Source: Caulobacter sp. 73W
Lineage (GTDB): Bacteria > Pseudomonadota > Alphaproteobacteria > Caulobacterales > Caulobacteraceae
DNA length: 64,000 nt
Assembly: GCF_041021955.1 (NCBI RefSeq)
Contig: NZ_CP158375.1
Coordinates: 2,728,001-2,792,000 of the forward strand
Direction of reading: 5' to 3'
In this document: positions 16,598 to 20,419 of the stretch, piece by piece
Layout of the letters: each line of letters starts with the position of its first letter
Numbering within the stretch: position 1 is the stretch's first letter
Translations under genes and position numbers: made by a program
Notes under the pieces: generated by a model
Seen by the model: only the letters and a program-made list of their open reading frames with translations
Database searches by the model: none
Told to the model about the DNA's origin: nothing

Positions 16598-18430
16598 TTA
16601 GTCGTCCTTGGCGCGACGCTTGCGGAAGGACGGGTTCAGCACTTGCTTGCGCAGGCGGATCGACTTCGGCGTCACCTCGACCAGCTCGTCGCTCTCGATA
16701 TAGGCGATGGCCTGCTCCAGGGACGGACGGCGCGGCGGGGTCAGGCGAACGGCTTCGTCCTTGCCCGAGGCGCGGACGTTGGTCAGCTGCTTGCCCTTGA
16801 TAGGGTTCACGTCCAGGTCGTCCGAACGCGAGTTCTCGCCGATGATCATGCCCAGATAGGTCTTCTCGCCAGCGCCGACGAACATTACGCCGCGCTCCTC
16901 CAGGTTCCACAGGGCGTAGGCCGCCGTGTCGCCGTCGGAGTTGGAGACCAGCACGCCCTTCGGGCGGCCGTCGATCGCGCCCTTGTAAGGCTCATAGTGG
17001 CTGAACACGCGGTTCAGCACGCCTGAACCGCGCGTGTCGGTCAGGAACTCGCCCTGGTAGCCGATCAGCGAACGCGACGGGCAGGCCAGCTGGATGCGGG
17101 TCTTGCCGGCGCCCGACGGACCCATGTCCTTCAGCTCGGCCTTGCGGGTGGACAGCTTCTCGATGACCACGCCGGTGAACTCGTCGTCCACGTCGATGAC
17201 CACGTCTTCGATCGGCTCCAGACGCTCGCCGTTCTCGCCCGTCTGATAGACCACGCGCGGACGCGAGATCGACAGTTCGAAGCCTTCGCGGCGCATGTTC
17301 TCGATCAGCACGCCCAGCTGCAGTTCGCCACGGCCGGCGACTTCATAGGCGTCGGCGCCCGGGGTCTCGCTCACGCGGATGGCGACGTTGGCCTCGGCTT
17401 CCTTCAGCAGGCGGTCACGGATGACGCGGCTTTGGACCTTGTCGCCTTCGCGGCCGGCCAGCGGGCTGTCGTTGACGCCCACGGTCATGGAGATGGTCGG
17501 CGGATCGATCGGCTGGGCGTCCAGCGGCTCCATCACTTCCAGGGCGCACAGGGTGTCGGCCACGGTCGCCTTGGACATGCCCGCGATGGCGACGATGTCG
17601 CCGGCTTCCGAGCCCTCGTCCAGCGGCTGACGCTTCAGGCCGCGGAAGGCCAGGACCTTGGTGATGCGGCCCTGTTCGATCTGCTTGCCGTCGCGGTCCA
17701 GCGCCTTGATGGCCATGCCGGGGACGGCCTTGCCGCTCTCGATGCGGCCGGTGAGGATGCGGCCCAGGAACGGATCGCTCTCGATCAGCACGTTCAGGAT
17801 GCGGAACGGCTTGTCCTTGTTCTCGGCCACGGCCGGCGGCGGAACGTGGTCGACGATCAGGTCGAACAGCGGCGCCAGGGTGTCGGACTTCTCGTTCAGG
17901 TCCATCGTCGCCCAGCCGTTGCGGCCCGAGGCGTAGATGTGCGGGAAGTCCAGCTGCTCCGGCGTGGCGCCGATGGCTTCGAACAGGTCGATCGTCTCCA
18001 GGTGAACCCGATCCGGATCGGCGTGCGGGCGGTCGACCTTGTTGATGCAGAGGATCGGGCGCAGGCCCATCTTCAGCGCCTTGGTCAGCACGAACTTGGT
18101 CTGGGGCATGACGCCCTCTTCGGCGTCCACCAGGATGACGCAGCCGTCCACCATGCCCAGGATCCGCTCGACCTCGCCGCCGAAGTCGGCGTGGCCGGGG
18201 GTGTCGATGATATTGATGCGGGTCTCGCCGGCCTTGCCGTTCCACATGACCGAGGTGCACTTGGCCAGGATGGTGATCCCGCGCTCGCGCTCCTGGTCGT
18301 TGGAGTCCATCGCGCGCTCGGTCGTCGCCTCGTTGGCTCGGAACACGCCGGATTGGGCAAGCAGCTGGTCGACCAGAGTTGTCTTGCCATGGTCGACGTG
18401 CGCGATGATGGCGATGTTTCGCATAGACAT
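16598..18430 (-). CDS. typA: GTP-binding protein TypA/BipA
   Basis: A 610-aa ribosome-binding translational GTPase, full family length. The G domain has G1 [11 protein letters not shown]3 [14 protein letters not shown] and G4 [10 protein letters not shown]. These are followed by the beta-barrel domain, two EF-G-like alpha/beta domains and the TypA-specific C-terminus ([21 protein letters not shown]). It assists 50S assembly and stress or cold adaptation by acting on the ribosome. It starts MSMRNIAII at 18430; the SD is weak. It ends at a strong terminator (16568-16591). A putative promoter with an internal palindrome lies at 18513-18542. Confidence 0.96.
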
Positions 18431-18735: not shown

Positions 18736-18764
18736 TTGATGCTTTGTGCGCCGCACCCTATAAA
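18736..18764 (+). promoter_or_regulatory. Housekeeping-type promoter of the small RNA
   Basis: TTGATG at 18736-18741 and TATAAA at 18759-18764, spaced by exactly 17 bases. This is unusually close to consensus for this GC-rich genome. It points at the 18771-18853 transcript and at no protein gene. Confidence 0.8.
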
Positions 18765-18770
18765 CATCCT

Positions 18771-18853
18771 TGTGAGGCGGCGCTGTCGCCTCTGCCCTTC
18801 CTGGGCGTTTCCTCCCTAATGAACTGCGGCGCCGTTTGGCGCCGCTTTTTTTT
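18771..18853 (+). ncRNA. Candidate trans-acting small RNA, suhB/MmgR-like
   Basis: A free-standing unit of about 83 nt. It begins about 7 bases after the TATAAA box. It then has a 5' hairpin (GAGGCG/CGCCTC, 18774-18792), a single-stranded linker containing TTTCCTCCCT (18808-18817), and an intrinsic terminator GCGGCGCC-GTTT-GGCGCCGC followed by eight T (18826-18853). No SD or open frame is present. The UUUCCUCCCU element is, as I recall, the conserved unpaired core of the alphaproteobacterial suhB/MmgR (alpha-r8) sRNA family, and it could pair with ribosome-binding sites. Promoter, architecture and motif all agree. Family membership needs a covariance-model check. Confidence 0.72.
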
Positions 18854-18898
18854 GGTCTGAATCCAGCCTGGGGCCTGGAAATAGCGAAATTGCGGCGA

Positions 18899-19780
18899 TT
18901 AGCGCAGTTTCGACCAGTCGACCGCCGCGACCGCCTCGGTCAGCCGGCCGATATCGCGGCGCAGGCGCTTCAGCCCGTCTGTCGCCGTCAGGGTCTTCTC
19001 GTCCATATAGAGCGCGCGGCTCAGCTCGATCTGCAGCGCATGGGTCCGCAGGTGCGGCCGCCCGTAGTGCTCGGTGGTCCAGCCCCCGGCATAGGGCGCG
19101 TTGCGCGCCACCCGGTAGCCCAGGGCGGTCAGGGTCTTCTCCGCCAGCCGCGTCAGCTCCGGCGCGCAGGACGAGCCGTAGCGGTCGCCCAGCACGATGT
19201 CGGTGGGCTTGGCGCCCTTCACCTCGCCCGCCGCCGCGGCCGCCGACGGCATGGAGTGCCAGTCGATCAGCACCGCCACGCCGTGAGCCGCCCGCGATTC
19301 GGCCAGCAGATGTCCCAGGGCGTCGTGATACGGGCCGTGGGCGGTCTCGATCCGCCGCTTGGCCTCGGCGAAGCTCAGCTTGCGCGAATAGATCTCGCGC
19401 CCCTCGGCCACCACGCGGGCGATGGAGCCCAGCCCCGCCGCCACCCGGGCCGACCGGCCGCGGGCGAATTCCGGCAGCTCGTCCTCGAACATCGCCGGGT
19501 CCAGCTCCCAGGCTTCGCGGTTCAGGTCCACATAGGCCCGCGCGTATGTGGCCTGGATCACCGTCGCGCCCTTGGCCGGGGCCGGGGCGATCAGTTCGTC
19601 CACGAAGGCGTCCTCGGACACCCGGATGTCGTGCGGCCCCAGGGCGGAAGCGGCCATCATCTCGGCGGGATAGACCCGGCCGGAGTGGGGCGAGGCGAAA
19701 ACCAGCGGCGTCGGTGGCGGCGATCCCGCGCGCAGGACCTTGAACGGCGCCTCGGAGGGCGCGTTCGCATCCGCGGTCAT
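18899..19780 (-). CDS. N-formylglutamate amidohydrolase family protein
   Basis: A 293-aa protein of the FGase family. It has SPHSGRVYP near the N-terminus, YARAYVDLNR, the metal or active-site segment LIDWHSMPS, and GGWTTEHYGRP. Family members hydrolyse N-formylglutamate to glutamate and formate in histidine degradation; no hut genes are adjacent. The ATG at 19780 is chosen over an upstream TTG at 19795. It is divergent from cpdR. Confidence 0.88.
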   Translation of the reverse strand: MTADANAPSEAPFKVLRAGSPPPTPLVFASPHSGRVYPAEMMAASALGPHDIRVSEDAFVDELIAPAPAKGATVIQATYARAYVDLNREAWELDPAMFEDELPEFARGRSARVAAGLGSIARVVAEGREIYSRKLSFAEAKRRIETAHGPYHDALGHLLAESRAAHGVAVLIDWHSMPSAAAAAGEVKGAKPTDIVLGDRYGSSCAPELTRLAEKTLTALGYRVARNAPYAGGWTTEHYGRPHLRTHALQIELSRALYMDEKTLTATDGLKRLRRDIGRLTEAVAAVDWSKLR

Positions 19781-19918
19781 CGGGGCCGTGCTCAAGGTGC
19801 GTTCGCGTCCGTTAAGGTTAAAGAGTCGCGGGCCTGTGGATAGCCGCTGGGCTTTATGGGCGATTTAAGGACCGTGGCCTAGAATAGCCTGCGAATCTCT
19901 CATCGAGCCCACATAGCC

Positions 19919-20275
19919 ATGCCCAAGATCCTCCTCGCCGAAGACGACAACTCCCTGCGCGGCTTTCTCGCCCGCGCCCTGGAGCGCGCCGGCTACGAAG
20001 TCACCGCCTGCGCCGACGGCGAGGAAGCGGTCACCCACCTCGGTGAGAACTGGGACCTGCTGCTGACCGACATCGTCATGCCCGGCATGGACGGGATCGA
20101 GGTCGCCCGCCAGGCCGCCGCCCGCCAGCCCGACATGCGCATCATGTTCATCACCGGTTTCGCCGCCGTGGCCCTGGCGGCCGCTGACCGAACGCCGGCT
20201 GGCGCCAAGGTCCTGTCCAAGCCGATTCACCTGCGCGAAATCGTGGGCGAGGTCGAACGGATGATGGCGGCTTAA
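19919..20275 (+). CDS. cpdR: Single-domain response regulator CpdR, ClpXP adaptor
   Basis: A 118-aa stand-alone receiver domain: acidic pocket AEDD (7-10), phospho-acceptor Asp51 in LLTDIVMPG, Thr in FITGFAA, and Lys in VLSKPIHL. There is no output domain. The length, the Asp51 position and the C-terminal VLSKPxHLREIVxEVxRMMAA match Caulobacter CpdR. When unphosphorylated, CpdR docks on ClpX at the cell pole and primes degradation of cell-cycle substrates such as PdeA, and, with RcdA, TacA and CtrA. Phosphate arrives through CckA-ChpT. It is transcribed alone, followed by tRNA-Val. Confidence 0.9.
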   Translation: MPKILLAEDDNSLRGFLARALERAGYEVTACADGEEAVTHLGENWDLLLTDIVMPGMDGIEVARQAAARQPDMRIMFITGFAAVALAAADRTPAGAKVLSKPIHLREIVGEVERMMAA

Positions 20276-20344: not shown

Positions 20345-20419
20345 GGACGCGTAGCTCAGCGGGAGAGCACCTCGTTGACATCGAGGGGGTCACAGGTTCA
20401 ATCCCTGTCGCGTCCACCA
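20345..20419 (+). tRNA. tRNA-Val(GAC)
   Basis: Complete cloverleaf. The acceptor is GGACGCG/CGCGTCC, the D arm is GCTCAGCGGGAGAGC, and the anticodon loop TTGACAT gives anticodon GAC. The T arm is ACAGG-TTCAATC-CCTGT, the discriminator is A, and CCA is encoded (20417-20419). It reads GUC and GUU valine codons. Confidence 0.95.

What the first reader, a model, noticed from the sequence alone, without database searches (positions are those of the whole stretch)
18736..18853. Orphan small RNA with textbook promoter, UUUCCUCCCU core and intrinsic terminator
TTGATG-N17-TATAAA leads directly to an 83-nt unit made of a 5' hairpin, an unpaired TTTCCTCCCT stretch and a GCGGCGCC terminator with eight T. 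No protein gene uses this promoter. The pyrimidine core could pair with Shine-Dalgarno sequences, and it matches what I recall as the conserved core of the alphaproteobacterial suhB/MmgR family, best known from rhizobia.
Basis: partly seen in the sequence, partly recalled or inferred. Interest (0 to 1): 0.75.

Follow-up and report, generated by a model that had tools for sequence, protein, structure and literature searches.

The report
SisA-type (alphaR8) small regulatory RNA
This is a Caulobacter version of a known small RNA (SisA/MmgR) that blocks ribosome-binding sites of many messages, and its promoter carries what looks like a switch worked by the cell's storage-polymer sensor.

Summary
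Window 18736-18853 (+) has TTGATG-N17-TATAAA, then an RNA of about 82 nt: two hairpins, unpaired UUUCCUCCCU, GC-rich terminator with U8. It scores 57.3 bits against Rfam RF00519 suhB/MmgR (cut-off 41). It is not an orphan: it lies beside an N-formylglutamate amidohydrolase (FGase) gene, as published for SisA of Caulobacter crescentus (PMC12559287), and published SisA residue numbers fit its letters. An RNA that looks like its antagonist CrfA is in the same genome, with a 14-nt complement. Most likely function: Hfq-dependent RNA that masks Shine-Dalgarno sites and is sponged by CrfA in carbon starvation, as shown in C. crescentus.

What my searches did not find in print: a conserved PhaR/AniA-type operator (TGCGCCGCA, 18747-18755) between -35 and -10. 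It is in 50 of 53 FGase-linked relatives (4.1 expected). Similar sites precede phasin, PHB depolymerase and phaR genes in this genome. Of 29 best-scoring genus copies read, 7 have this motif and 21 another palindrome instead. Siblings with one targeting core may thus be wired to different sensors. Family membership is near certain; the operator's function is inferred.

The parts
18736..18741 (+). -35 element TTGATG
   Evidence: sequence
18746..18756 (+). palindrome GTGCGCCGCAC holding a PhaR/AniA-type site TGCGCCGCA (18747-18755), centre at -21
   Evidence: sequence; fits YGCRNYGCR of PMC12542648; such a motif in 50 of 53 FGase-linked relatives; binding not tested
18759..18764 (+). -10 element TATAAA
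   Evidence: sequence
18772..18853 (+). SisA-type alphaR8 sRNA (about 82 nt)
   Evidence: Rfam RF00519 at 18787-18860, 57.3 bits; start inferred from published SisA residue numbers G33, C40, C45
18774..18792 (+). 5' hairpin, 8 pairs, changes on both sides at 5 pairs
18793..18807 (+). second, weak hairpin UGCCCUUCCUGGGCG, never varies in the alignment
18808..18817 (+). single-stranded core UUUCCUCCCU (anti-Shine-Dalgarno)
18804..18816 (+). stretch matching SisA G33-C45, covered by CrfA in the published probing; exact complement in this genome's CrfA-like RNA
18826..18853 (+). intrinsic terminator, 8 G-C pairs and T8, changes on both sides at 7 of 8 pairs
18899..19795 (-). N-formylglutamate amidohydrolase gene (FGase), convergent neighbour, published neighbour of sisA
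   Evidence: PF05013, E 1.6e-74
16598..18430 (-). TypA/BipA GTPase gene, divergent neighbour
   Evidence: ORF; BipA_C PF21018, E 7.2e-46

Best explanation
The feature is the orthologue of SisA, an alphaR8 (MmgR/suhB) small RNA, in a Caulobacter-related genome. It is transcribed from its own sigma-70-like promoter, is held on Hfq, and pairs through the unpaired core UUUCCUCCCU with Shine-Dalgarno regions, lowering expression of many mRNAs (in C. crescentus several TonB-dependent receptors among them). When carbon runs out, the sponge RNA CrfA offers the same purine-rich bait (GGGGAGGAAACGCCC) and removes it. Transcription is probably also gated by PhaR/AniA: the repressor would sit between -35 and -10 and be pulled off when it binds PHB granules, so that the RNA is made when carbon is stored. 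Shown here by computation: family, locus, structure, CrfA complement, operator-like site and its conservation, phaR gene. Shown by others in C. crescentus: Hfq, targets, CrfA. Inferred: that this orthologue does the same, and that PhaR binds here.
For: RF00519 57.3 bits over cut-off 41. FGase neighbour, the published place of sisA. Published residues G33, C40, C45 all fit with start 18772, while starts 18771 and 18773 each contradict one (my reading). CrfA-type hairpin with exact complement at C1:2363607 in the same genome; its region found in 41 of 41 genus-sample genomes, own included, loop identical in 20 of 20 loci read. Operator: YGCRNYGCR in 50 of 53 FGase-linked loci against 4.1 expected, mostly 60-61 bases before the core; 25 of 30 loci of the best matches of the class sample (24, expectation 3.2, plus L112 put right). 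phaR gene in own genome, 106.8 bits, and in 30 of 30 of those class genomes. Own-genome TTGTGCRNYGCA: 11 matches at 10 places against 2 for the reversed control, some before Phasin_2 and PHB_depo_C genes, with two further sites read between a thiolase gene and phaR. In S. meliloti PhaR binds the mmgR promoter in vitro, site CAATTGTGCACCGCAGCATTA (PMC12542648).
Against: No expression data for this strain. The TonB-receptor test was weak: 7 of 28 scored receptors had p <= 0.05 (30 of 80 Plug hits were loaded, 2 had no ATG). Of 10 places with GGGAGGAA before an ATG, 8 frames were scanned and none is a TonB receptor. The published work calls SisA nearly constitutive and reports no shared motif upstream of sisA-D, which does not speak for strong PhaR repression under its conditions. 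3 of 53 FGase-linked loci and 5 of 30 class loci lack the motif. Loci are related by descent, so shuffles overstate independence.
Confidence: 0.87

Rival explanations
1. SisA-type sRNA as above, but the promoter palindrome is bound by a regulator other than PhaR, or is a promoter feature without a repressor.
For: The site's centre is at -21, while the S. meliloti mmgR site is listed at 13 from the start; SisA was called nearly constitutive; binding was not tested.
Against: The motif agrees with YGCRNYGCR exactly, similar sites lie before phasin, PHB depolymerase and phaR genes in the same genome, and PhaR binds the mmgR promoter in S. meliloti.
Confidence: 0.2
2. The element is only a terminator or 3' processing product of the FGase or typA transcript.
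For: It ends 45 bases from the FGase stop codon.
Against: It is on the opposite strand to both genes and has its own promoter; hairpins are kept by paired changes in relatives.
Confidence: 0.02
3. A leaderless micro-ORF (GTG at +1 to TAA after the core, 15 codons) is the product, alone or besides the RNA.
For: Frame open in the window; GTG or ATG at that place in 33 of 41 aligned loci.
Against: Start plus stop at codon 16 in only 14 of 41; many orthologues stop at codon 5; changes follow base pairing instead.
Confidence: 0.02

Closest known systems
SisA (CCNA_R0014) of Caulobacter crescentus, Vogt et al. 2025, PMC12559287
   Same: Family, core UUUCCUCCCU, FGase neighbour, residue numbering, CrfA partner with matching loop.
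   Different: NA1000 has four siblings SisA-D that share the core; this genome has two copies by model and by exact core. No expression data here. The operator is not described in that main text (AniA, PhaR 0 occurrences). SisA's own letters were not available for comparison.
MmgR of Sinorhizobium meliloti (Rfam RF00519)
   Same: Same covariance model, core, terminator; PhaR-type site in the promoter.
   Different: Single copy there; the PhaR site is listed 13 from the start, here its centre is at -21; phasins are the suspected targets there.
Qrr siblings and sponge QrrX (Vibrio)
   Same: Several sibling RNAs sharing one core and one sponge, as compared in PMC12559287.
   Different: Qrrs are co-regulated; alphaR8 copies fall into different promoter classes.

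Membership tests
alphaR8 / suhB / MmgR (RF00519) | score above Rfam gathering threshold over the full model | tested here: met
   57.3 against 41 bits, positions 1-77 of 77
alphaR8 / suhB / MmgR (RF00519) | single-stranded 10-mer UUUCCUCCCU after a weak hairpin | tested here: met
   18808-18817; predicted unpaired probability 0.92-1.0
alphaR8 / suhB / MmgR (RF00519) | Rho-independent terminator | tested here: met
alphaR8 / suhB / MmgR (RF00519) | neighbouring FGase gene (usual, not required) | tested here: met
   PF05013 at 18899-19795
SisA orthologue | residues G33, C40, C45 as published | tested here: met
   fits start 18772, not 18771 or 18773 (compared by hand)
SisA orthologue | pairing partner CrfA in the genome | tested here: met
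   L119, exact 13-nt complement and 14 consecutive Watson-Crick pairs by reading; CrfA named from structure and from the published G49-C63 numbering, not from its published sequence
SisA orthologue | Hfq binding and repression of targets | not testable with these tools
   needs co-immunoprecipitation and reporters
PhaR/AniA regulon | promoter site YGCRNYGCR | tested here: met
   TGCGCCGCA 18747-18755; conservation
PhaR/AniA regulon | phaR gene in the genome | tested here: met
   PF07879 106.8 bits; PHB_acc_N and PHB_acc
PhaR/AniA regulon | binding of PhaR and response to PHB | not testable with these tools
   needs gel shift and mutants

The most novel reading that the evidence does not exclude
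AlphaR8 RNAs in Caulobacter are one targeting core copied behind different metabolic sensors. The FGase-linked copy (SisA, this one) is gated by the PHB sensor PhaR, so that full carbon stores shut down nutrient receptors; other copies are gated by a sugar-type (LacI-like) repressor at TGTTAGCGCTAACA; all are silenced together by one CrfA sponge at carbon starvation. Store status, sugar status and starvation thus meet on a single 10-nt core.
Probability: 0.55. Interest if true: 0.65.

Novelty: new member of a known kind. Interest (0 to 1): 0.45.

Why it matters
The RNA itself is known. What would be new is the input side. Why bacteria keep several nearly equal sibling RNAs is an open question that PMC12559287 raises for SisA-D. 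The partition of promoter motifs among copies suggests a testable answer: one output, separate inputs. The PhaR site would tie the PHB store directly to a network that controls TonB-dependent uptake in Caulobacter, and would extend the PhaR-alphaR8 link, known from S. meliloti, to other parts of the class.

Tried and rejected
A leaderless micro-ORF was considered and rejected. TonB-receptor targeting was tested with a rough start-codon rule and gave only weak support; I do not rely on it, and the full-length duplex energy is not used because it ignores internal structure. One search scanned 30 class loci without turning minus-strand ones; its result (16 of 30) is void and was redone with strands (24 of 30). 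still misplaced L112, whose contig begins too near; one search reads it in place and finds the motif, so 25 of 30 (strict form 20 of 30). One search's list omitted the window's own exact 13-mer; one search shows that it is there. The alignment A1 used 41 of 46 distinct sequences (window plus 40 of 45): L054, L064, L077, L081 and L086, which looked most distant, were left out before counting. All rows were picked for holding the core, so that the core's invariance in A1 is by construction. In one search two of 55 segments without the core were dropped (one of L014, one of L035). The second palindrome pattern was written after looking, so its low chance figure is descriptive. Literature searches: MmgR/sRNA, alphaR8, Sm8RNA, mmgR-AniA-PhaR (15 of 2,727 listed), Caulobacter-PhaR-polyhydroxybutyrate (12 of 17 listed), SisA-CrfA, TAGCGCTA-Caulobacter, Caulobacter-polyhydroxybutyrate-sRNA-Hfq. 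No listed title or abstract start ties PhaR to SisA; most of these papers I saw as listings only, and subscription journals are mostly not held.

Full report
Observation. The stretch folds much better than shuffles (z -5.3). It has three stem-loops in all: an 8-pair hairpin at 18774-18792, a weak one at 18793-18807, and the terminator. Across 41 aligned sequences (window and 40 FGase-linked relatives) the first hairpin and the terminator change in a compensatory way (12 of 20 pairs with changes on both sides, 62 cells against 15.1 in shuffles, 0 of 500). The middle hairpin does not vary; the core does not either, but the rows were chosen for holding it.

Identity. Rfam places 18787-18860 in RF00519 suhB/MmgR with 57.3 bits (cut-off 41). 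The genome holds one more copy at C1:846218-846294, 47.7 bits. The exact 10-mer occurs at five places: the two copies; two where its complement lies on a Shine-Dalgarno site before a start codon; and one that I take to be coding, in a long open frame. In the class sample 159 of 289 genomes have a match and 126 of 289 one over the cut-off; in the genus sample 40 of 41 have one to eight matches.

SisA. Vogt et al. 2025 (PMC12559287; I read the abstract, parts 1-3 of 4 of the results, part 1 of 2 of the discussion, and found passages) describe four alphaR8 siblings SisA-D in C. crescentus. SisA sits downstream of an FGase gene, shares the 10-mer, acts with Hfq, represses many mRNAs and is sponged by CrfA in carbon starvation. 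Here the FGase gene is the convergent neighbour (PF05013, E 1.6e-74) and a TypA/BipA gene the divergent one (typA and bipA are not mentioned in that paper). Published residues G33, C40 and C45 match the window with a start at 18772, seven bases after the -10, and not with 18771 or 18773. R0014 (SisA) was enriched 51.7-fold with Hfq in PMC11005374 (passages seen). A CrfA-like RNA is present in this genome: at C1:2363607 a hairpin GGCGTTTC-GGGGAGGA-AACGCC followed by a strong hairpin and T run. The published CrfA residues G49-C63 fit its GGGGAGGAAACGCCC if it starts at the A of ACCGGGAG (my fit; the CrfA paper PMC2937403 is not held). A like stretch is found in 41 of 41 genus-sample genomes, own included, and the loop is identical in 20 of 20 loci read. 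As the exact core occurs in only two such RNAs here and NA1000 has four, this is probably another species; no tool named the organism. Named loci with the nearest FGase (93% identity) are labelled Caulobacter.

Relatives. Using the FGase protein, 80 loci from named records were fetched, the best of 158. In 53 of 80 an RNA with GTTTCCTCCCT lies within 500 bases of the FGase match end on the opposite strand. The other 27 include contigs that end too soon (L028, L044, L076) and loci with the core further away or absent.

The operator. Between -35 and -10 the window has GTGCGCCGCAC (18746-18756). Lagares et al. 2025 (PMC12542648; abstract, part 1 of 2 of the motif section, and found passages read) give the S. 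meliloti PhaR (AniA) motif as WNWD2NYGCRNYGCRNH2WNW and show PhaR binding to the mmgR promoter. The word Caulobacter does not occur in that text, and PhaR or AniA do not occur in Vogt et al.. The window site fits YGCRNYGCR exactly. Of the 53 FGase-linked promoters, 50 have it (4.1 expected from shuffles), 41 have the stricter TGCN3GCA (2.5 expected), and the places cluster at 60-61 bases before the core. Of the 30 loci of best matches of the class sample, 25 have it (with the L112 correction; expectation was 3.2): 19 of 22 with FGase in the fetched stretch, 6 of 8 without. These loci are related by descent, so the shuffles overstate independence.

The regulator. The genome encodes PhaR (PF07879 106.8 bits; both PhaR domains). 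The pattern TTGTGCRNYGCA occurs 11 times at 10 places, sisA included, against 2 for the reversed pattern. Judging by open frames and Pfam, sites lie before a phasin (L149), a PHB depolymerase (L156), an ExbB-type protein (L151, about 240 bases upstream) and two bacterial sugar transferases (L152, L153). Of the rest, the frame that starts after the L154 site has no Pfam family (an O-antigen-ligase-like gene ends beside it), L158's frame has none, L155 lies inside a long frame, and L157 was not scanned. Two further YGCRNYGCR sites lie between a thiolase gene and phaR (read by eye). This resembles the S. meliloti list of phasins, depolymerase, exopolysaccharide genes and mmgR.

Siblings. In the genus sample I read one locus per genome for 29 of 41 genomes, the best-scoring copy each, so the numbers are not copy frequencies. 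Seven have the PhaR-type motif and no second palindrome: six with FGase in the stretch, and L223, whose contig is cut but shows a TypA-like frame. Twenty-one have a palindrome of the type TGTTAGCGCTAACA near the -10 and no PhaR motif; one (L225) has neither. None of the 53 FGase-linked loci has the second palindrome, and this genome's second copy has neither. I recall such palindromes as LacI-family operators; no call shows that. Around three such copies six frames were scanned: TonB receptor and Band 7 protein (L200), GDSL lipase and signal peptidase (L202), family 2 glycosidase and aldose epimerase (L216).

Mechanism. Best supported: an Hfq-bound RNA that masks Shine-Dalgarno sites with its core and is silenced by CrfA. 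In this genome ten places fit GGGAGGAA-N3-9-ATG against one for the reversed pattern, including a short-chain dehydrogenase and a DUF3309 protein with the full ten bases. Any strong SD of this spelling would score here, so these are candidates only; none of the eight frames scanned is a TonB receptor. Receptor targeting, shown in C. crescentus, got weak support (7 of 28). PhaR control of transcription is an inference from sequence and from S. meliloti; SisA's nearly constitutive level in the published growth conditions speaks for modest repression at most.

Verdict. The added value is the conserved PhaR-type site and the partition of promoter motifs among siblings.

Noticed in passing
L200-L214, L216-L220, L226 (54-56 bases upstream of the core): Palindrome TGTTAGCGCTAACA / TGGTAGCGCTAAC in promoters of 21 of 29 genus alphaR8 loci read, none of them FGase-linked; absent from 53 of 53 FGase-linked loci.
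   Followed up: partly
L002/L004 (genome C1:846218-846294, minus): Second alphaR8 copy of this genome, with neither promoter motif; its upstream resembles that of L225 by eye.
   Followed up: partly
L119/L229 (genome C1:2363526-2363691, plus): CrfA-like RNA; loop identical in 20 of 20 genus loci read.
   Followed up: yes
L161 and L166 (genome C1:658375 and C1:2081007): Two perfect ten-base complements of the core lie on Shine-Dalgarno sites, of a DUF3309 protein and a short-chain dehydrogenase.
   Followed up: partly
L188 (genome C1:1451501-1451824, minus): TonB-dependent receptor with UAGGGAGGGGCGC before its assumed start, the best of 28 receptors scored.
   Followed up: no
L151 (genome C1:357847-357858): PhaR-type site upstream of an ExbB-type gene, a possible link from PHB state to TonB energy supply.
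   Followed up: no
G000 and G289-G328: alphaR8 matches vary from one to eight among the 40 genus genomes that have any; this genome has two.
   Followed up: partly
window 20345-20416: tRNA gene (RF00005, 67.6 bits) shortly after an ORF that looks like a single-domain response regulator (19919-20275, my reading).
   Followed up: no
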